A DNA stretch of 64,000 nt. It comes from Caballeronia telluris (lineage in GTDB: Bacteria; Pseudomonadota; Gammaproteobacteria; Burkholderiales; Burkholderiaceae). The DNA is taken from NCBI RefSeq assembly GCF_001544495.1, contig NZ_FCNZ02000001.1, forward strand, positions 310,001 through 374,000. Direction: 5' to 3'. A program made the position numbers and the translations under genes. A model generated the notes under the pieces. That model did no database searches. It saw only the letters and a program-made list of their open reading frames with translations, and was not told the origin of the DNA. Below are positions 20,677 to 31,666 of this stretch, one piece after another (positions within the stretch are counted from its first letter, which is position 1; the number at the start of each line of letters is the position of its first letter).

Positions 20677-22740
20677 ATGAATGCCGTGGCTGAAACACTC
20701 GACCGGCCAGCGACGCGCGCCGACACGCGGTCGATGGCGAATGCGCTGCGCATGCTCGCCGTCGATGCGGTCCAGCAGGCGAACTCCGGGCATCCCGGCA
20801 TGCCGATGGGCATGGCCGAGATCGCGGTCGCGCTGTGGGACCGGCACCTGAAGCACAATCCGCGCAATCCCGATTGGCCCGACCGAGATCGCTTCGTGTT
20901 GTCGAACGGACATGGGTCGATGCTGCTCTACGGCCTGTTGCATCTGACGGGGTATGACCTCTCCATCGACGAACTGAAGCGCTTTCGCCAGTTGCACAGC
21001 AAGACGCCGGGACATCCGGAAGTGGGCGTGACGCCGGGCGTCGAGACGACGACCGGACCGCTCGGACAAGGCTTTGCAAATGCGGTCGGCATGGCACTCG
21101 CCGAGGCGCTCTTCGCACGCGAGTTCAACCGGCCCGGTCATGAGATCGTCGATCACCGGACTTATGCGTTCGTCGGCGACGGCTGTCTGATGGAAGGGAT
21201 TTCGCACGAAGCAGCGTCGCTCGCGGGCACCTTTGGACTCGGCAAGCTCGTCGTGCTTTACGACGACAACGGCATCTCGATCGACGGCTACGTCGCGCAA
21301 TGGTTCGCCGACGACACGCCCGCGCGCTTCGCGGCGTACGGGTGGAACGTGCTGCGCGACGTCGACGGTCACGATGTCGACGCCGTCGATCGCGCGTTGC
21401 GTGAAGCGCGCACCTCGCAGCAGCCGACGCTCATTTGCTGCAAGACGGTGATCGGTAAGGGCGCGCCGTCGATGGCGGGAACGCACGACGTGCACGGCGC
21501 GCCGCTCGGCGCGAAGGAGGCCGCCGCAACGCGCGAAGCGCTGGACTGGCCGCATGCGCCGTTCGAGATCCCTTCGTCGATACGGCATGCGTGGGATGCG
21601 CGCGAGACAGGCGCGGCAGCCGAATCCGATTGGACACAGCGCTTCGAAGCGTACCGTGCACACTATCCCGACCAGGCCGCCGAGTTCGAACGGCGCGCGC
21701 GCGGCGCGTTGCCCGCCGGATGGCGCCAGGCGGCGCGTGCGCTGGTCGGCGACGCGAACCGCGAGGCGCAATCCATCGCGACACGCAAGGCATCGCAGAA
21801 CGCGATCGAAGGACTCGCGCGCGCGTTGCCCGAGTTGCTCGGCGGATCGGCGGATCTGACGGGCTCGAACCTCACCCGCTGGAAAGATGCCATCGACCTG
21901 CAGCCGGTTGAAAGTAGTTCGCCATGCAACTATATCCACTTCGGCGTGCGGGAGTTCGGCATGAGCGCGGTGCTCAACGGAGTCGCGCTGCATCGCGGTT
22001 ATCTGCCGTTCGGCGGCACGTTCCTCACCTTCTCCGACTATTCACGCAACGCGCTGCGCATGGCGGCGCTGATGAAGACGCGCACCGCCTTCGTCTTCAC
22101 GCACGATTCGATCGGCCTTGGCGAGGACGGTCCGACGCATCAGTCCGTCGAGCATGCGGCTTCGTTAAGACTCATCCCCGGTCTCGACGTATGGCGTCCG
22201 TGCGACACGGTCGAGACCGCGCAGGCGTGGGTCAGCGCGGTGGATCGCGACCGGCCGTCGTGCTTGTTGCTCAGTCGCCAGAACCTGCCGTTCGTCGCGC
22301 GCAGCGAACAGCAGGTCGATGCGATCGAACGCGGCGGCTATGTGTTGCGCGACTGGCCGGACGCATCGGGTCCGAATGACAAATGCGTCGTGCTGATCGC
22401 GACCGGCTCCGAAGTCGCGCTCGCGCTCGGCGCCATCGAACCGCTGCGCGAAGCGGGCATCCTCGCGCGCGTGGTGTCCATGCCATCGACCAATGTCTTC
22501 GACCGGCAGTCGTTCGCATGGCGCGAACGCGTGCTGCCGCCGGGCGTGCCGCGCGTCGCGGTCGAAGCGGGGGTCACTGCGTTCTGGCGGCAATACGTGG
22601 GGCTGGAAGGCGGCGTCGTCGGCATCGATACCTTCGGCGAGTCCGCGCCCGCCTCCGCGCTCTTCGAGCATTTCGGGCTCACCATCGGCGCCGTCGTCGA
22701 TGAAGTGCAACGTGTCGTGACGTCCTCAAGGAGCCTGTGA
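20677..22740 (+). CDS. cbbT: Transketolase
   Basis: A 687-residue thiamine-diphosphate enzyme moving two-carbon units in the regenerative phase. The N-terminal signature is [18 protein letters not shown]. The ThDP-binding motif is [18 protein letters not shown] with the following DDN. Catalytic Glu and His regions are [14 protein letters not shown] and [24 protein letters not shown] precedes the ATG. Its stop overlaps the cbbA start by one base. Confidence 0.96.
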
Positions 22741-23777
22741 TGGCCTTCATCGCCCTGCGTCAATTGCTGGATCATGCGGCCGAGCACGGCTACGGCGTGC
22801 CCGCGTTCAACGTCAACAACATGGAGCAGGTGCAGGCCATCATGCAGGCTGCTCAAGCCACGAAGAGCCCGGTCATCCTGCAGGCGTCGGCGGGCGCGCG
22901 CAAGTACGCGGGCGAGCCGTATCTGCGGCATCTGGTGCTCGCGGCCATCGAGGCGCATCCGGATTTGCCCGTCGTGCTGCATCAGGATCATGGCGCGAGT
23001 CCTTCGGTGTGCCAGCAGGCGATCCGCTCGGGCTTCACGTCGGTGATGATGGACGGCTCGCTCATGCCCGACCAAAAGACGCCCGCCGCCTACGACTACA
23101 ACGTCGACGTAAGCCGCCGCGTCGTCGAGGCGGCGCATTCGGTGGGCGTGTCGGTGGAGGGCGAACTCGGCTGTCTCGGCTCGCTCGAAACGGGCGCGGC
23201 GGGCGAGGAGGACGGCGTGGGCGCGCAAGGCACGCTCTCTCGCGACGAACTGCTCACTGATCCCGAACAGGCGCAGGCCTTCGTCGAAGCAACGGGCGTC
23301 GATGCGCTCGCGATCGCCATCGGCACATCGCATGGCGCGTACAAGTTCAGCCGCCAGCCGACTGGCGACATCCTCGCGATCGACCGCATCGTCGAAATTC
23401 ACGAGCGCATTCCGAACACGCATCTCGTGATGCACGGGTCGTCGTCGGTGCCGCAGGAATGGCTCGCGACGATCCGCGAATTCGGCGGCGAGCTTTCGGA
23501 GACATACGGCGTGCCGGTCGAGGAGATCCAGCGCGGAATCCGGCACGGCGTGCGCAAGGTGAACATCGACACCGACATCCGGCTCGCCATGAATGGCGCG
23601 ATGCGGCGCGCGCTGGCGTCGGCGCGCTCGGAGTTCGATCCGCGGCACGCGCTCAAGGCGGCGACGGCGGCGGCGCGCGATCTATGCAAGGCGCGCTTCG
23701 AGGCGTTCGGTTGCGCGGGCCAGGCCGAGCGCATCAAGCCGATGCCGCTGGAGGCGATGGCGCAGCGGTATCACTGA
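22740..23777 (+). CDS. cbbA: Fructose-bisphosphate aldolase class II, CbbA type
   Basis: A 345-residue zinc aldolase condensing triose phosphates (and erythrose 4-phosphate with DHAP) in the cycle. Zinc and catalytic motifs are [29 protein letters not shown] and [10 protein letters not shown]. The ATG at 22740 lies six bases after GGAG and overlaps the cbbT stop; the GTG at 22737 is a less likely start. It is the last recognisable gene of the operon. Confidence 0.95.
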
Positions 23778-24214
23778 GGAAGCGGACGTGGCCGGATGCG
23801 TCGCCATCTATCCTTAGATGTTTGGGAGTGCAGACGCATCGCGACGCTAACCTGTCGTTTTGAGGTGTAGCGTTTTGTCGCATCGTGTAATGAAAAGCGA
23901 AGTTCGCATCGCGGGGTCCGTCGCTGGATGCCCGATGGTGCGCCGACGCACCGGATGCTCAGATTTACATAGGAGGATGCCTAATTTAAATGCCCGATTG
24001 ATTGAGATGTGTCCTATTCGTGGCTTGAGACAAGCGCGCTGAAATACGCGCCGAGCTTCAAGGGAAATTTTCCGGTGAAAAGGCCGGTTATCGCCCCGCT
24101 CGAAGTTGTACTCAACCCGACACGACCGATGCTTGATTTTTGAAGCGCGCCAAGGTGGCCGCCCAACGAAATTGCCACGCTGACCGGTCAGTCAAGATGC
24201 CAGGAATTTGGACT
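23778..24214. other. Gene-free stretch between cbbA and the adhesin
   Basis: The 437 bp hold no credible gene. The base composition looks more AT-rich than the neighbours, with runs such as TAATTTAAAT. GGGAAATTTTCC at about 24072 is a near palindrome. I see no clear terminator for the cbb operon. The 3' part must carry the adhesin promoter. Confidence 0.5.
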
Positions 24215-24301
24215 GTGAACAGAATCTACAAAACGGTATGGAACCAGGTCACGCGCACATGGACGGCGACCTCCGAGCTTGCGAAGGGCCACACGAAGTA
24301 G
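24215..24301 (+). pseudogene. Severed ESPR leader of the adhesin (in-frame TAG)
   Basis: GTG at 24215 opens a frame encoding NRIYKTVWNQVTRTWTAT and SELAKGHTK, a textbook extended signal peptide region (ESPR) of trimeric autotransporters. Codon 29 is TAG at 24299-24301. The same frame continues at once with TSGRKAVSAVMSV into the hydrophobic signal core and the adhesin, so one nonsense base splits what was a single leader. Confidence 0.85.
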
Positions 24302-24319
24302 ACGAGCGGACGCAAGGCG

Positions 24320-27300
24320 GTGTCGGCGGTCATGTCCGTGACCGCGCTCATGGCGACCATTGCCGGCGCAGGTTCGATGTTCGTTTCCCACGGCGCGTAT
24401 GCCGCGAGTCAGGCGCTCTTCAACGATGGCACGTCGAACGCGTGCACCTCGATCAACGCGGATGGCACGACATCGGCGGTAACTGGCACCGCAGCGTGTG
24501 CGACCGCACTCGGCGCGGGTACGGCTGCTGCGGCCGGCCTCGGTAGCGGTCTGAATTTCATCTCGGACGCGCATGGCGCGTTCGTGAACGGCGGCCTCGA
24601 AGTATTCGGCACGGGCGTGACGGCGGGCAGCCCGGCTGCGTATATTCACGGCGGCCTGAGTCTCTTCAGCGGCCCCGGAACGACGGGCGCGGCGAACAAG
24701 ATCGTCGGCGTGGCGGCGGGAACCCTTGGTGTGGGCAGCACCGATGCGGTGAACGGCGACCAGTTGAACACCACCAATACGAACGTCGCGGGTTTGACGA
24801 CGACGCTGAACGGCATCACGAGCGGTGGCGGAATCAAGTACTTCCGCACGAACTCGTCGTTGGCGGATGCGTCTGCCACGGGGACGGATGCAGTGGCGAT
24901 CGGCGGCGGCGCGCAAGCGAGCACGGCCGATGCGCTCGCGATGGGGAATTCGGCCGTTGCGAACGGAACGAACGCCATCGCGCTCGGTGGCCGGAGCACG
25001 AGCACCGCGGGCGCTTCCATTGCGATTGGCGAGCAGGCTTCGGCACTCGGCAGTGGTGCGGGCGCTATTGCCATAGGCAGTGCGGGCGGTAGCTATGCCG
25101 CAGCCACGGCAGTTGGCAATTCGTCGATAGCGATCGGCTCCGGTGCAGCGACCGTCGGCAATTCCTCAGCCTACCAAAACGTTGCGATCGGACCCGGTGC
25201 CATCGCGGGCAACCCGATTACGAACGGGTATAACAATACCGCGCTTGGTGCGAATGCCAATGCGGTATGGGCGGGCACGACGGCAATCGGGAACGGCGCA
25301 ACAGCCTCATCCTGGTATACAACGGCATTGGGCGGCGGGGCGACTGCCACTGCGTATGGCTCGATCGCTGTGAGCGGGAGCTGGCCCGGTAGCAACCCGA
25401 CGGTTGCGTCCGGCTCCAACAGCGTCGCCATCGGCAACAACGCCAATTCTTCCGCCTCTACATCCGTCGCGCTGGGATATTACGCCACTTCGTCGGGCAG
25501 TAGCGCTGCGGCCATCGGCCCCTATGCCACGGCATCTGCGGGCAACAGCGTCGCACTCGGCAACAAGTCGACGACCACCGCCGACCTGACCCAGGCAGGC
25601 TACAACCCGGGATCGACGGCGTTGTCTGGCGTCGCATCGACGGCGAATGGCGAAGTGTCGGTAGGTTTGGCGAACAAGGAACGCCGCATCACGAACGTGG
25701 CGCCCGGCTACGCGGCAACCGATGCCGTGAACGTGAGCCAATTGAAGTCGGAAGATGCAAAGGTCAACCAGGAAGGTGCGACCACGGCATCGGCGCTGGG
25801 CGGCGGCGCGAGCTATAACGCGACCACCGGCGCTATCTCGAACCCCAGCTACGCGGTGGGCAGCAACACGTACAACAACGTGGGTTCGGCGCTGGCGGAT
25901 CTGGCGGGCCAGGCGGCGAGCGCGGTGAAGTACGACAGTGCATCGAAGGACACGATCACGCTAGCAGGCACGTCGGGCACGACGCTGACGAACCTGAAGG
26001 CGGGCTCGATCGCCGCGGGAAGCACCGATGCGGTGACCGGTGATCAGTTGAACACGACGAATGCGAACGTGGGGGCGAATACGACGGCGATCGCGGGTCT
26101 GGACACGCGTGTGACCCAAAATACGACTGACATCGACAGCCTGAACACGACCGTCGCGTCGAACACGGCTGATCTGACGAGCGCGCAGTCGCAGTTGAGC
26201 GCACTCGATGCCGCAGCCGTGAAGTACGACGGCGCGTCGAAGGACACGATCACGTTGGCAGGCACGTCGGGCACGACGCTGACGAACCTGAAGGCCGGTT
26301 CGATCGCCGCAGGCAGTACCGACGCAGTGACGGGCGATCAGTTGAACACGACCAACACGAACGTGACGGCGAACACGACTGCAATCGCGGGTCTGGACAC
26401 GCGCGTGACGACCAACACGACGGACATCACAAGCGCGCAGTCGCAATTGAGCGCACTTGATGCCGCCGCCGTGAAGTACGACAGCGCGTCGAAGGACACG
26501 ATCACGCTGGCTGGTACATCCGGCACGACGATCACGAACCTGAAGGCCGGTTCGATCGCCGCAGGCAGCACGGATGCGGTGACGGGCGATCAGTTGAACA
26601 CGACCAACACGAACGTAACGGCGAATACGACGGCGATCGCGGGTCTCGACACGCGCGTGACCCAAAATACGACTGACATCGACAGCCTGAACACGACGGT
26701 AGCGTCGAACACGGCTGATCTGACGAGCGCGCAGTCGCAGTTGAGCGCACTCGATGCCGCAGCCGTGAAGTACGACAGCGCGTCGAAGGACACGATCACG
26801 TTGGCAGGCACGGCAGGCACGACGATCACGAACCTGAAGGCCGGTTCGATCGCAGCAGGCAGTACCGACGCAGTGACGGGCGATCAGTTGAACACGACGA
26901 ACTCGAACGTGACGGCGAACACGACTGCAATCGCAGGTCTGGACACGCGTGTGAGCGCACTCGATGCCGCAGCCGTGAAGTACGACAGCGCGTCGAAGGA
27001 CACGATCACGCTCGCAGGCACGTCAGGCACGACGCTGACGAATCTGAAGGCGGGTTCGATCGCCGCAGGCAGCACGGACGCGGTGACCGGTGATCAGTTA
27101 AACACGACGAATGCGAACGTAACGTCGAACACGACGGCGATCGCAGGTCTGGACACGCGCGTGACGACCAACACGACCGACATCGCCAGCGCCCAGTCGC
27201 AACTGAGCGCACTCGATGCCGCAGCCGTGAAGTACGACAGCGCATCGAAGGACACAATCACGCTGGCGGGCACGGCAGGCACGATCATCTCGAACGTGAA

Positions 27301-29605
27301 AGCGGGCGTCGCGGACACCGATGCAGCCAACGTCGGTCAGTTGAAGGCTTCGGGCCTCGTCGATGCGAATGGTAATCCGCTGTCGGGTGTGACATACGAC
27401 ACGAGCGCGAAGGACACGATCACGCCGGCAGGCACGGCAGGCACGACGCTGACGAACCTGAAGGCGGGTTCCATCGCCGCAGGCAGCACCGATGCGGTAA
27501 CGGGCGATCAGTTGAACACGACCAACACGAACGTGACGGCGAACACGACGGACATCGCGGGTCTGGACACGCGTGTGACGACCAACACGACGGACATCGC
27601 AAGCGCGCAGTCGCAGTTGAGCGCACTCGATGCCGCAGCGGTGAAATACGACAGTGCCTCGAAGGACACGATCACGTTGGCGGGTACATCCGGCACGACG
27701 CTGACGAACCTGAAGGCGGGTTTGATCGCCGCAGGCAGCACCGATGCAGTGACCGGCGATCAGTTGAACACGACCAACACGAACGTGACGGCGAACACGA
27801 CGGCGATCGCAGGTCTGGACACGCGTGTAACAACCAACACGACCGACATCGCCAGCGCCCAATCCCAACTGAGCGCACTCGATGCCGCGGCCGTGAAGTA
27901 CGACAACGCATCGAAGAGCACGATCACGCTCGCAGGCACGTCAGGCACGATCATCTCGAACGTGAAAGCGGGCGTCGCGGACACCGATGCAGCCAACGTC
28001 GGTCAGTTGAAGGCATCAGGCCTCGTCGATGCGAGCGGCAATGCATTGCCCGTCGTGACCTATGACGCAAGCTCGAATCATTCGACCGTGACCTTCGCAG
28101 GTGCAACCGGCACGCAGCTCAAGAACATCGCTGCTGGCACGGACAACACGGACGCAGTGAACCTCGCCCAGTTGAAAGCCACCGGCGTCGTCGATGCGAA
28201 CGGCAATGCACTCGATGCCCTGACATACGACGCCGGCTCCAGCAAGGACGCCATCACGCTGAAAGGCACGAACGGTACGCTCATCACCAACGTGAAGGCC
28301 GGTCGTCTGGCGGCCGACAGCACCGATGCCGTCAATGGCGCGCAACTCTACGCGCTCGCTGGCAACACGAGCGACGCGTATGTGGCGAACAACGGAAGCG
28401 GCGTGACCTACTCGCGGACCAACGACAGTGGCCTTCCTCCCGACGATGCACATGCTCAAGGCATCGGATCGACGGCTGTCGGTTACTCGGCGACGGCTTC
28501 CGCGAATGACGCACTCGCGCTCGGACGCGGCGCGCAGGCGAACTTTGCGAACAGCGTCGCGCTGGGCGCGGGTTCTGCAACGACCGTCGGCGCGCAGGTG
28601 AATTACGCGGCATTCGGTCTTGCTGCACCGCAATCGTCGGCGGGCGAGGTGAACGTCGGCAACCGCCAGATCACCGGCGTGGCCGCAGGCTCGGCCGATC
28701 AGGACGCGGTGAACGTCGCGCAGTTGAAGAGCGTCTCCTCGAAGGTCGACGGCCTGAGCGCCACGGTTGCTCAAGCCGACAACAACGCGATCAAGTACGA
28801 CGACGCGTCGCAAGGCAAGGTCACGCTCGGCGGCACCGACGCGTCGCACGCACCGGTGACGATCGCCAACGTCGGCGACGGAACGATCTCAGCCGACAGC
28901 ACGGAAGCCGTCAACGGTTCGCAGCTCTACAATCTGCAAAGCCAGATCGAGAGCACCGTGGCGAATGCAGCGCAGGCCGGTGACATTGTCGCGGCGGCCG
29001 GCGCTACGGCGGGCGAAGCGGCGCAGGCCTCCGGCACGCATGCGGTCGCTGTCGGCGCGAACGCGTCGGCGTCAGGCGACAACAGCGTGGCGCTCGGTGC
29101 GCACGCGACGGCCAGTGCAAGCAACAGCACGGCCATCGGCTCGGGCGCAACGGCGAGCCACGACAACGCGGTCGCGATCGGTGCCAATTCGACGACGGAC
29201 CGGCCGAATTCGGTCTCGGTCGGCGCGGTCGGCAACGAACGTCAGATCACGAACGTCGCCGCGGGCACGCAACCCACCGACGCGGTCAACTTTGCGCAGA
29301 TGCAGGGCGCGGTGGCGGGCGGCGTCGCGACAGCGGACGCCTACACGGATTCGCGCATCAACGCTGTGCAGCGTGACAGCTACGCCGGCACGGCAGCGGC
29401 GATGGCGATCGCAGGCTTGCCGCAGGCGACGCTGCCGGGTCGCGGCATGATGGCGGTGGCGGGCAGCTCGTACCACGGGCAATCCGCGGTCGCACTGGGT
29501 GTGTCGGCGCTGTCGGAGAGCGGCCGGGTCGCCATCAAGGTAACCGGTTCGACCACCGCTCACGGTGATTACGGCGTGTCGGCGGGCGCAGGCTACCACT
29601 GGTAA
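24320..29605 (+). CDS. Trimeric autotransporter adhesin (YadA/Hia family), leader interrupted
   Basis: The 1761-codon frame encodes an outer-membrane trimeric adhesin. After a hydrophobic signal core ending AYAAS, the head has many collagen-like AIG/ALG repeats (for example AIGGGAQAS, ALGNKSTTT) to about residue 480, then neck and stalk modules with KAG..ADSTDAVNGAQL/QLNTT motifs, a second AIG head near residue 1570-1650, and a C-terminal YadA anchor ending AGAGYHW. The upstream ESPR in the same frame is cut off by TAG, so this protein would have to start at GTG 24320 or ATG 24332. Those give a short leader without its basic N-region. It may therefore be non-functional, read through, or a sequencing error. 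It stands alone between C1 operons and is followed by a strong terminator. Confidence 0.85.
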   Translation: MSAVMSVTALMATIAGAGSMFVSHGAYAASQALFNDGTSNACTSINADGTTSAVTGTAACATALGAGTAAAAGLGSGLNFISDAHGAFVNGGLEVFGTGVTAGSPAAYIHGGLSLFSGPGTTGAANKIVGVAAGTLGVGSTDAVNGDQLNTTNTNVAGLTTTLNGITSGGGIKYFRTNSSLADASATGTDAVAIGGGAQASTADALAMGNSAVANGTNAIALGGRSTSTAGASIAIGEQASALGSGAGAIAIGSAGGSYAAATAVGNSSIAIGSGAATVGNSSAYQNVAIGPGAIAGNPITNGYNNTALGANANAVWAGTTAIGNGATASSWYTTALGGGATATAYGSIAVSGSWPGSNPTVASGSNSVAIGNNANSSASTSVALGYYATSSGSSAAAIGPYATASAGNSVALGNKSTTTADLTQAGYNPGSTALSGVASTANGEVSVGLANKERRITNVAPGYAATDAVNVSQLKSEDAKVNQEGATTASALGGGASYNATTGAISNPSYAVGSNTYNNVGSALADLAGQAASAVKYDSASKDTITLAGTSGTTLTNLKAGSIAAGSTDAVTGDQLNTTNANVGANTTAIAGLDTRVTQNTTDIDSLNTTVASNTADLTSAQSQLSALDAAAVKYDGASKDTITLAGTSGTTLTNLKAGSIAAGSTDAVTGDQLNTTNTNVTANTTAIAGLDTRVTTNTTDITSAQSQLSALDAAAVKYDSASKDTITLAGTSGTTITNLKAGSIAAGSTDAVTGDQLNTTNTNVTANTTAIAGLDTRVTQNTTDIDSLNTTVASNTADLTSAQSQLSALDAAAVKYDSASKDTITLAGTAGTTITNLKAGSIAAGSTDAVTGDQLNTTNSNVTANTTAIAGLDTRVSALDAAAVKYDSASKDTITLAGTSGTTLTNLKAGSIAAGSTDAVTGDQLNTTNANVTSNTTAIAGLDTRVTTNTTDIASAQSQLSALDAAAVKYDSASKDTITLAGTAGTIISNVKAGVADTDAANVGQLKASGLVDANGNPLSGVTYDTSAKDTITPAGTAGTTLTNLKAGSIAAGSTDAVTGDQLNTTNTNVTANTTDIAGLDTRVTTNTTDIASAQSQLSALDAAAVKYDSASKDTITLAGTSGTTLTNLKAGLIAAGSTDAVTGDQLNTTNTNVTANTTAIAGLDTRVTTNTTDIASAQSQLSALDAAAVKYDNASKSTITLAGTSGTIISNVKAGVADTDAANVGQLKASGLVDASGNALPVVTYDASSNHSTVTFAGATGTQLKNIAAGTDNTDAVNLAQLKATGVVDANGNALDALTYDAGSSKDAITLKGTNGTLITNVKAGRLAADSTDAVNGAQLYALAGNTSDAYVANNGSGVTYSRTNDSGLPPDDAHAQGIGSTAVGYSATASANDALALGRGAQANFANSVALGAGSATTVGAQVNYAAFGLAAPQSSAGEVNVGNRQITGVAAGSADQDAVNVAQLKSVSSKVDGLSATVAQADNNAIKYDDASQGKVTLGGTDASHAPVTIANVGDGTISADSTEAVNGSQLYNLQSQIESTVANAAQAGDIVAAAGATAGEAAQASGTHAVAVGANASASGDNSVALGAHATASASNSTAIGSGATASHDNAVAIGANSTTDRPNSVSVGAVGNERQITNVAAGTQPTDAVNFAQMQGAVAGGVATADAYTDSRINAVQRDSYAGTAAAMAIAGLPQATLPGRGMMAVAGSSYHGQSAVALGVSALSESGRVAIKVTGSTTAHGDYGVSAGAGYHW
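25921..27990 (+). repeat. Tandem coding repeats in the adhesin stalk
   Basis: About nine near-identical modules encode KYDSASKDTITLAG, TLTNLKAGSIAAGSTDAV, TGDQLNTTNTNV, TANTTAIAGLDTRV and TTNTTDIASAQSQLSALD. Copies begin near 25927, 26218, 26467, 26764, 26974, 27226, 27397 (divergent), 27640 and 27892; unit lengths vary (about 210, 252 and 297 bp). High DNA identity between copies implies recent duplication and likely length variation between strains. Confidence 0.9.
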
Positions 29606-29657
29606 TCGCACGGCAGTCGTGCCGCGGAGCGCAAGCTTCGCGGTGCCGAAAGCAGAC

Positions 29658-29694
29658 AGCCCCTTGTGGACGAAAGTCCGCAAGGGGCTTTTTC
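29658..29694 (+). terminator. Rho-independent terminator of the adhesin gene
   Basis: AGCCCCTTGTGGAC pairs with GTCCGCAAGGGGCT around a GAAA loop, with a single T/G mismatch, followed by a run of T. It lies 52 bp after the adhesin stop. Confidence 0.9.
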
Positions 29695-29705
29695 ATGTCG
29701 ATCGA

Positions 29706-31088
29706 TCAACCTTTCTTTTTCGTCGCCCCGGGCGCATGCCACGCCATCAGATCCTCTTCGACGCGGTCCACTTCGCATCCCCAGTCGAGCGGCTGATCCT
29801 GATCGAAGCGCTTGCCCAGCTGCCACGCGATCTCCGCGCGCGCGAGTTGCACGCCGAGATAGAACGCATGCCCGCCGTCGTTCCCTACATTCAGCGATGG
29901 GTAAAGCTCGAACGGATCATTCGCCGTCTGATGACCGTCGCGGTTATAGACATGGATGCCATCGTTAGCCACTTGCACGCGGAAATTCGGATCGCGGACC
30001 GCAGCCGCTAACTCGTCGATTTCCGCCGCGCTATAAGGAAACGGCCGCTTCGCATGCAGCGCAGACAGATCGCCCGAGATGCCTTTCGGCAGCACCTGCG
30101 CCTCGCGCGCCGCATGCATGACGCGGCGGGCGACGTCGGCTTCGCGTACCGCACGCCGCGCGTGCAGGCTCACCGACGTCGTCAACACCGCCGCGACGCG
30201 CAACTCCGCCGCCATCCCGAGCAGCACCGCGTTGATGCCGCTCGTGTCCGCCTCGGTCAGCTCGGTGACGTTGCCGATGCCCATCATGATCGCGACATCG
30301 GGATAACGCTCGCGCAGCGCGACATAGCGTGCGATCGACGCCGCGAGGCCGAACGGAACGGGATCTAGGATCGGGTCGGCGAGAAAGGCGCGCGAGCGCT
30401 TCGTCATGGCGTCGATGGCCGCATCGAGCGAAGCCGGATCGCCCGGTTCGCGCGCGACGAGTATCGGCGTCGATGCCACTTCGTCCGCGACCCACAACGT
30501 ATCGACGTTCAGGCTCATCAGATAATCCGCGCCCGCGCGGCCGCCGCGCACGAGTTCGTCGGTAAGCATCGAATCGACGCTCACGCGATAACCCTGTTCC
30601 TTCAGCATGCGCACCGCGTCTTCGAGATGCGCAAAGGGCGTCTCCGGAAGACAGCCGATGTCGATCACGTCCGCGCCTTGCCGCGCATACTCGCGCGCGC
30701 GCGCGGCGATGCCATCGAGATCGAGACGCGGCGCATCGACGATCTCCGCGAAAATCTCGGTCTCGTAGCGCGACAGGTCGAAGTGCTTCGCTTCGCGGCC
30801 GAAGAACTGCGGCAGGTCCTTCACTTCTTCGGGTCCGCGTTCGACGCTCACGCCATAGTGCTGCGCGAGCGCATCGAGATCGCCGCGGCATCGGCCGGGC
30901 ACGATGATGCGGTTCGCCTCGACAGGCGCGGCGACGCGTCGCCGGATCATGTCGGCCGTCATGAGCCCCGCGACCTGCAAACCGATCTCGCGCACTTCCC
31001 ACGAGAACGGCGTCGGCTGCATGCCTTCGAGCACCTGATACAGACTTTTTTCGGCGAGACGGCCAGTCAGGAAGACGATGTGTTCCAT
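29706..31088 (-). CDS. Dihydropteroate-synthase-like protein of H4MPT synthesis (DUF6513-type)
   Basis: A 460-residue protein with an N-terminal domain starting HIVFLTGRLAEKSLYQVL and a pterin-binding TIM-barrel half (GADVIDIGCLPETPF, YRVSVDSMLTDEL, ILDPVPFGLAASIARY, MMGIGNVTELTEADTSG). It resembles the archaeal dihydropteroate-synthase-like proteins conserved with H4MPT genes. The likely role is joining the pterin to the ribofuranosylaniline part made by MptG, but this is inference. The start at 31088 overlaps the dmrB gene by 22 bp. The last residues are Lys-rich. Confidence 0.8.
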   Translation of the reverse strand: MEHIVFLTGRLAEKSLYQVLEGMQPTPFSWEVREIGLQVAGLMTADMIRRRVAAPVEANRIIVPGRCRGDLDALAQHYGVSVERGPEEVKDLPQFFGREAKHFDLSRYETEIFAEIVDAPRLDLDGIAARAREYARQGADVIDIGCLPETPFAHLEDAVRMLKEQGYRVSVDSMLTDELVRGGRAGADYLMSLNVDTLWVADEVASTPILVAREPGDPASLDAAIDAMTKRSRAFLADPILDPVPFGLAASIARYVALRERYPDVAIMMGIGNVTELTEADTSGINAVLLGMAAELRVAAVLTTSVSLHARRAVREADVARRVMHAAREAQVLPKGISGDLSALHAKRPFPYSAAEIDELAAAVRDPNFRVQVANDGIHVYNRDGHQTANDPFELYPSLNVGNDGGHAFYLGVQLARAEIAWQLGKRFDQDQPLDWGCEVDRVEEDLMAWHAPGATKKKG

Positions 31089-31666
31089 GCGAGCCCGAGG
31101 TTCGAGAGCCGTTGATCGAGCGCCGCCTTCAGGTCGTCGAGTGAGCGCGCGACGGTCGTGTGCTCGATCCGGGCGAGCCGCTCGACGTTCTCGAATTCGA
31201 TCGCGCGCGGCCGCACCTCGACCCACTCGTGCGGACTCTGCGTGATGACGCTCGGCGCGGTATCGCATGCGAAAACGATGCCCGGCACGCATTGCTTGCC
31301 GGCTTGCGCATAGAGGTTGGTCGGCAGCGTATCGGAGATGCCGAGCGCGCACTTCGCGACCGTGTTGCTCGTCGCGGGTGCGATCACGACCGTGTGATAG
31401 TCGCCCTGATACAGCATGCCGACGGGCACGCTGCTCGCGCTGTTGTCGCGGAACACGCGGAAATGCTCGCGCAACTTCGGCACGGGCCAGCCGTAGAGCG
31501 GCAGCACTTCCTCGCCCGCCGACGACAAGAAGAGATCGACGCCCGGCAGTTTCAGCGCGAGGTCGATGGACTCCTCGATCATGTGACCGGACCCGGTCAC
31601 GCACCATGCGAAGCGCGCGTCGGGCTTGAACTCGTCGAGCCTTCGGGCGGGCGTGTGTTCGCTCAT
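31067..31666 (-). CDS. dmrB: DmrB-like flavoprotein, dihydromethanopterin reductase
   Basis: A 199-residue flavoprotein of the archaeal type. It shows FAWCVTGSGHMIEESIDLAL at the N-terminus and the FMN-region motif VVIAPATSNTVAKCALGISD. An archaea-like flavoprotein from Burkholderia xenovorans was shown to reduce dihydromethanopterin to H4MPT (DmrB); this sequence and setting fit that protein. It overlaps the activator gene upstream by 4 bp and the dihydropteroate-like gene downstream by 22 bp, so all three are translationally coupled. Confidence 0.85.
   Translation of the reverse strand: MSEHTPARRLDEFKPDARFAWCVTGSGHMIEESIDLALKLPGVDLFLSSAGEEVLPLYGWPVPKLREHFRVFRDNSASSVPVGMLYQGDYHTVVIAPATSNTVAKCALGISDTLPTNLYAQAGKQCVPGIVFACDTAPSVITQSPHEWVEVRPRAIEFENVERLARIEHTTVARSLDDLKAALDQRLSNLGLAWNTSSS

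What the first reader, a model, noticed from the sequence alone, without database searches (positions are those of the whole stretch)
24215..29605. In-frame TAG inside the extended signal peptide of a 1.8-kilo-residue adhesin
GTG 24215 starts a perfect ESPR (NRIYKTVWNQVTRTW...). Codon 29 is TAG at 24299, and the same frame then runs 1761 codons through signal core, heads, stalk and YadA anchor. The rest of the gene is intact, so the nonsense change must be recent, or suppressed, or an on/off switch, or a base-call error. Restart at 24320 or 24332 would give a leader without the ESPR, which normally slows translocation.
Basis: seen in the sequence. Interest (0 to 1): 0.75.

Follow-up and report, generated by a model that had tools for sequence, protein, structure and literature searches.

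The report
Adhesin gene stopped in its leader
A very long bacterial surface-adhesin gene carries one stop codon inside the part that codes for its export leader, which likely silenced it recently; the closest relative's copy of the same gene is broken too, so this looks like ordinary gene loss rather than a switch.

Summary
In detail: TAG at 24299-24301 is codon 29 after GTG 24215, inside a genuine ESPR, and the frame then runs 1767 codons through a YadA anchor. It is rare: 3 of 150 listed ESPR matches in 58 genomes of the genus have an in-frame stop (one is a misread frameshift), and 0 of 132 listed outside it. Best reading: recent loss of a dispensable trimeric autotransporter adhesin. Its slot holds an intact adhesin in one relative, a more decayed copy with its own lesions in the closest relative, 32 bp in another, and no adhesin match in seven. 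None of 52 tRNAs found reads amber, no repeat lies at the site, and restart leaders lack any K or R. Against simple decay: of 59 anchor-bearing ESPR adhesins with no or one in-frame stop, both lone stops (this gene and an unrelated one in G056) are TAG in the leader, and the rest of this gene is clean. That leaves a leaky-leader reading open but unlikely. A base-call error cannot be excluded without reads. A close precedent is in print: meningococcal msf, stopped in its ESPR, without detectable expression.

The parts
24197..24199 (+). in-frame upstream ATG, alternative start six codons before the GTG
   Evidence: frame shown
24215..24298 (+). ESPR coding stretch, 28 codons from GTG
   Evidence: PF13018 match 52.5 bits
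24299..24301 (+). in-frame TAG, codon 29
24302..24403 (+). rest of the leader: basic stretch, hydrophobic core and likely signal peptidase site, cut off from the start by the TAG
   Evidence: the cleavage site is by eye
24320..29605 (+). 1761-codon open frame: head, stalk and anchor of a trimeric autotransporter adhesin
25921..28077 (+). internal stalk repeats, 76-89% DNA identity to each other
   Evidence: self-comparison; periods of about 252 and 210
29420..29602 (+). YadA anchor
   Evidence: PF03895, 65 bits
22737..23777 (+). class II fructose-bisphosphate aldolase gene, left border of the slot
29706..31607 (-). DUF6513 gene, right border of the slot (ORF as listed; true start probably further inside)

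Best explanation
A single TAG at codon 29, inside the stretch that codes for the extended signal peptide, interrupts the reading frame of this trimeric autotransporter adhesin gene and likely makes it a recently silenced, dispensable gene. Translation from 24197 or 24215 would end after 34 or 28 residues, before the hydrophobic core. A restart further in would give a leader without basic residues and without the ESPR, so export is predicted to fail or be poor. The loss would be tolerated because the locus is a variable slot and the genome holds four other YadA anchor genes. Shown: the stop, the intact remainder, the slot's variation, the broken sister copy, no amber tRNA among those found. Inferred: absence of product, neutrality of the loss, and that the base is real.
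For: Slot comparison: of 12 relatives fetched, 10 had both borders in the fetched piece. Of these, G053 has an intact 705-codon ESPR adhesin there (72% identical over the last 495 residues), G001 (closest by the genes compared, fba 97% identical) has the same gene broken, G014 has 32 bp between the borders, and 7 have other sequence with no adhesin match at E 1e-3. G001's copy has its own in-frame TAG at codon 9 of the ESPR, a change of frame behind the leader and a further in-frame stop in the passenger frame, while its fba and sigma-54 activator genes have no internal stop. The TAG of the window is not shared by G001 and G001's lesions are not in the window, so the two losses are separate events. 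The downstream frame was under purifying selection over most of its history: Ka/Ks 0.18 over the last 490 codons against G001, 0.22 against G053. No amber anticodon among 52 tRNAs. Restart leaders: 0 K/R in 4 of 4 examined; of 57 intact leaders, 53 have at least one K/R in the 12 residues before the core (crude measure). Redundancy: 5 YadA anchors in the genome, this one included.
Against: The remaining 1767 codons are clean, so nothing else marks the gene as dead. Among 59 anchor-bearing ESPR adhesins that are intact (57) or have one in-frame stop (2), both lone stops are TAG in the leader; the first 55 codons are 7-8% of the nonsense target, so two of two by chance is about 0.5-0.6%, a post hoc figure from two cases. 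No second isolate of the species was seen, so whether the stop is fixed is unknown. No expression data.
Confidence: 0.78

Rival explanations
1. Base-call or assembly error: the gene is intact and the TAG is not in the cell.
For: One in-frame stop in a 5.4-kb gene is the only fault seen; draft assembly of 163 contigs; no reads available.
Against: Long contig (664 kb); the four neighbouring genes checked are open to their ends; the sister copy at the same place is independently broken, which makes a true loss the likelier reading.
Confidence: 0.08
2. Restart: ribosomes begin again after the TAG (24320, 24332 or 24350) and the protein is exported without an ESPR.
For: These start codons lie 18, 30 and 48 bases behind the stop. 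By the review PMC8151025 (passages) signal peptides longer than 50 residues with an ESPR are found in only about 10% of type 5 secreted proteins, and the C-terminal part of an extended signal peptide is usually enough for export. The database gene call starts at 24350.
Against: The restart leaders lack K and R. The same review says the ESPR is needed for export of the Vta9 passenger in E. coli and the extended peptide for assembly of EmaA. In meningococcal msf, where a restart after an ESPR deletion was also possible on paper, no expression was detected (PMC5856348, passages). In G056 the stop lies after the hydrophobic core and the next start codon is at codon 92, so restart is not expected to rescue that case.
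Confidence: 0.07
3. Leaky amber throttle: low readthrough makes trace amounts of a costly giant adhesin, and whatever residue is inserted is cut off with the signal peptide.
For: Two unrelated adhesin genes (window, G056) have a lone TAG, both in the leader, with 1767 and 1116 clean codons behind it.
Against: No amber anticodon among the tRNAs found in either genome (52 and 40). No stable structure behind the TAG (z 0.54). The third leader TAG (G001) sits in a gene with further lesions. TAG is what 226 of 329 one-step nonsense changes in this gene would give, so three TAGs mean little. Breaks of another kind do fall outside leaders: 14 of 128 loci have the anchor in another frame and 4 have several stops.
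Confidence: 0.05
4. Silent cassette or phase switch: the stopped copy is kept as a donor or off state.
For: Repeat-rich gene; badA pseudogenes beside badA are proposed to take part in reshuffling in Bartonella (PMC8859334, passages).
Against: No repeat at or near the TAG. The longest DNA matches to three other ESPR adhesin loci of the genome are 74% over 255 bases and 68% over 486, with only short pieces (34-58 bases) at 77-88%, so no trace of recent exchange with those three.
Confidence: 0.02

Closest known systems
Neisseria meningitidis msf variants SV-8/SV-13 (PMC5856348, passages read)
   Same: Trimeric autotransporter adhesin with an ESPR, stopped inside the ESPR, with a restart possible on paper; no expression detected in isolates with SV-8.
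   Different: There a 14-bp deletion shifts the frame; here a single in-frame nonsense codon. There many isolates share it; here one genome.
Brucella bmaA/bmaB autotransporter pseudogenes (PMC8111173, passages)
   Same: Adhesin genes lost in parallel in sister lineages by different lesions, one by a nonsense change near the N-terminus that removes the signal peptide.
   Different: Type Va, not trimeric; no ESPR lesion described in the passages read.
Mannheimia haemolytica trimeric autotransporter adhesin pseudogenes (PMC7424683, passages)
   Same: Trimeric adhesins that are pseudogenes or not detected in one genotype; one has a premature stop in some strains.
   Different: The stop given for adhesin G lies late (position 1446 of 1993).
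G056 ESPR adhesin (L193)
   Same: Lone TAG in the leader, 1116 clean codons behind it, anchor in frame.
   Different: Stop at codon 49, near the likely cleavage site; a different adhesin.

Membership tests
trimeric autotransporter adhesin (type Vc) | C-terminal YadA anchor | tested here: met
   PF03895, 57.5 bits and 65 bits
trimeric autotransporter adhesin (type Vc) | head and stalk repeats | tested here: met
   PF05658 (5 stretches), PF05662 (16 stretches)
trimeric autotransporter adhesin (type Vc) | signal peptide joined in one open frame to the passenger | tested here: not met
   TAG at 24299 separates them
trimeric autotransporter adhesin (type Vc) | trimer on the cell surface | not testable with these tools
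   needs protein
pseudogene | lesion expected to remove the product | tested here: met
   stop before the signal core
pseudogene | no dedicated means of reading through | tested here: met
   no amber anticodon among 52 tRNAs found; low-level misreading not testable
pseudogene | locus dispensable in relatives | tested here: met
   of 10 slots seen whole, 1 intact adhesin, 1 broken, 8 without an adhesin match
pseudogene | relaxed selection on the rest of the gene | tested here: inconclusive
   Ka/Ks 0.18-0.29 against G001 and 0.22-0.33 against G053 is a long-term average and cannot show a recent change
pseudogene | no product in the cell | not testable with these tools
   needs proteomics
phase-variable contingency gene | unstable repeat or invertible element at the switch | tested here: not met
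programmed stop-codon recoding | dedicated tRNA or stimulatory structure | tested here: not met
programmed stop-codon recoding | stop conserved at the same place in orthologues | tested here: not met
   G001 has its TAG at another codon, G053 none

The most novel reading that the evidence does not exclude
Amber codons in the cleavable leader are a recurrent throttle on giant adhesins in this genus: readthrough lets a trace of protein pass, and the inserted residue is discarded with the signal peptide, so the mature adhesin is unchanged.
Probability: 0.05. Interest if true: 0.75.

Novelty: new member of a known kind. Interest (0 to 1): 0.3.

Why it matters
It catches an adhesin gene at what looks like the first step of loss, beside a sister copy several steps further and an intact adhesin in a third species, so one slot shows stages in the turnover of surface adhesins in a genus of soil and symbiotic bacteria. 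If the leader-stop pattern held up in a larger sample, it would suggest either that stops in the body of such proteins are harmful (an exported fragment without its anchor) and so are purged, or that leader stops are used.

Tried and rejected
Amber suppression: not supported, no CTA anticodon among the tRNAs found in the window's genome (52) or in G056 (40). Phase variation: no repeats at the site. Readthrough structure: none. Gene conversion with paralogues: no close tracts to the three loci compared. A conserved, programmed stop: the sister's TAG is at another codon. A promoter and terminator scan of 23700-24350 found no site, which says little in this genus. A protein search with residues 1-500 of the downstream frame listed the best 120 of 5857; only P0005 is near-identical (3 member sequences, one contig of the window's contig length), so no other isolate was seen. 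Paper searches for amber codon, autotransporter and pseudogene together (0 papers) and for stop codon readthrough with signal peptide, bacteria and adhesin (1 paper, listing only, on E. coli protein networks) gave no precedent for the throttle; only open-licence papers are held. The DUF6513 row for G001 is invalid (a stop character upstream of the likely true start upset the alignment). In one search several minus-strand loci were printed in the wrong orientation and were not used. The 23 of 150 listed ESPR rows that I did not fetch whole, and the 29 of 179 not listed, are left out of the leader-against-body count; the 128 loci in it are 127 listed rows (the window included) and one weaker match of the window's genome (G000:C7). 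Of the 128, 51 had no anchor in reach (20 of them ran off a contig end), 14 had the first anchor in another frame and 4 had several stops; these 69 were dropped from the count of 59.

Full report
What is there. The window is G000:C1:310001-374000 of a 7.06-Mb draft genome. The gene lies between a fructose-bisphosphate aldolase gene (22737-23777) and a convergent DUF6513 gene followed by a sigma-54 activator gene. GTG 24215 opens an ESPR that Pfam recognises at 52.5 bits across the stop; TAG at 24299-24301 is codon 29. Behind it the frame is open for 1767 codons to the end of a YadA anchor at 29420-29602.

How unusual. In 58 genomes of the genus, the window's included, ESPR matches number 179, of which 150 are listed; 3 of the 150 have an in-frame stop, all TAG. 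One (G001:C384) is a frameshifted gene. The other two are the window's gene and its syntenic counterpart in G001. In a draw of 70 genomes across the family 150 rows are listed, 132 of them outside the genus; none of the 132 has a stop (my count of rows).

The slot in relatives. I fetched the region behind fba in 12 relatives; in 10 both borders were in the piece. G053 has an intact ESPR adhesin in the slot; G001 has the window's gene, broken; G014 has 32 bp; 7 have other sequence without an adhesin match. G001 is the closest relative by the genes compared (fba 97.4%, sigma-54 activator 95.8% identical). Its copy has a TAG at codon 9 of the ESPR, changes frame behind the leader, and has another stop in the passenger frame, followed by an 834-codon open stretch to the anchor. 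Its fba and activator genes have no internal stop, so bad sequence is not the obvious cause. The lesions of the two species differ, so the gene appears to be lost separately in both.

Timing. Over the last 490 codons Ka/Ks is 0.18 against G001 and 0.22 against G053; over the last 300 it is 0.29 and 0.33: the gene was under purifying selection over most of its history. The 5.3-kb frame offers 329 one-step nonsense changes; that none is seen behind the TAG bounds neutral drift at about 0.027-0.035 substitutions per site (95%, nonsense only), against a synonymous distance to G001 of 0.24-0.26 at two neighbouring genes. If the gene is dead, it died late. Of the 329 changes 226 give TAG, so the kind of stop carries little information.

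Can it still work? Infernal finds 52 tRNAs in the genome; ARAGORN, run on stretches that hold all 52, names 52 genes, none with an amber anticodon. Starts behind the stop are at 24320, 24332, 24338, 24350 and 24377; the four leaders examined (all but 24338, which lies inside the first) have no K or R, because the basic stretch of the leader lies between the TAG and the first of them. In 53 of 57 intact leaders of the genus at least one K or R stands in the 12 residues before the core. By the review PMC8151025 (passages) the C-terminal part of an extended signal peptide usually suffices for export, which speaks for a restart, but the Vta9 passenger is not exported in E. coli without its ESPR and EmaA needs the extended peptide to assemble. 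There is no tandem or inverted repeat at the site and no unusual structure behind the TAG (z 0.54). So the likely state is off.

A result against plain decay. I oriented 128 ESPR loci of the genus (127 of the 150 listed rows and one weaker match) and looked for the anchor with a profile made from 57 C-termini of these same loci. 57 loci are intact; 2 have exactly one in-frame stop before the anchor: the window (codon 29) and G056 (codon 49, with 1116 clean codons behind it). Both are TAG and both lie in the leader; no lone stop lies in a body. The first 55 codons hold 7-8% of the nonsense target, so two of two has a chance of about 0.005-0.006. This is post hoc and rests on two cases. Breaks of other kinds do fall outside leaders: 14 loci have the first anchor in another frame, some of which may be frameshifted genes and some unrelated neighbours, and 4 have several stops. 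No amber anticodon is found among the 40 tRNAs of G056 either. A plausible plain reason (inference) is that a stop in the body yields an exported fragment without its anchor, which harms the cell, while a stop in the leader is harmless.

Comparison with what is known. Loss of autotransporter adhesins by early stops is documented: msf in meningococci has a frame-breaking deletion in the ESPR and no detectable expression (PMC5856348, passages); Brucella bma genes are lost in parallel by different lesions, one near the N-terminus (PMC8111173, passages); Mannheimia trimeric adhesins are pseudogenes or not detected in one genotype (PMC7424683, passages). The present case is a further member of that kind. 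What it adds is the set of stages at one slot and the lone-leader-stop pattern.

Verdict. Observation confirmed. Most likely a recently silenced adhesin gene (0.78), with base-call error (0.08), restart (0.07), a leaky throttle (0.05) and a silent cassette or switch (0.02) behind it.

Noticed in passing
L193 (G056:C423), codon 49 of the ESPR gene: A second, unrelated ESPR adhesin with a lone TAG in its leader and 1116 clean codons behind it up to the anchor.
   Followed up: partly
window 23778-29705 and L085-L096: The slot between fba and the DUF6513 gene is variable: adhesin, 32 bp, or other sequence (by eye a thioredoxin-like protein and a toxin-antitoxin pair).
   Followed up: partly
L190/L379 (G000:C18:4173 downwards): Another ESPR adhesin of the same genome ends at codon 573 without a convincing anchor down to the contig end and looks frame-shifted.
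   Followed up: partly
L192 (G001:C384): The other ESPR match of G001 is also broken, by shifts of frame in and behind the leader; neither of G001's two ESPR matches opens an intact adhesin.
   Followed up: partly
window 29706-31607 (-): The 633-codon ORF of the DUF6513 gene probably starts some 160-170 codons further in; in G001 the upstream part has a stop (codon 160).
   Followed up: partly
G000:C7:154669-154791: A weak ESPR match (30 bits) that opens only 62 codons, in front of a frame that looks by eye like a VgrG-type protein; not an adhesin.
   Followed up: no
window 25921-28077: Stalk repeats of about 252 and 210 bases; the relatives' copies are much shorter, so repeat number probably drives length.
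   Followed up: no
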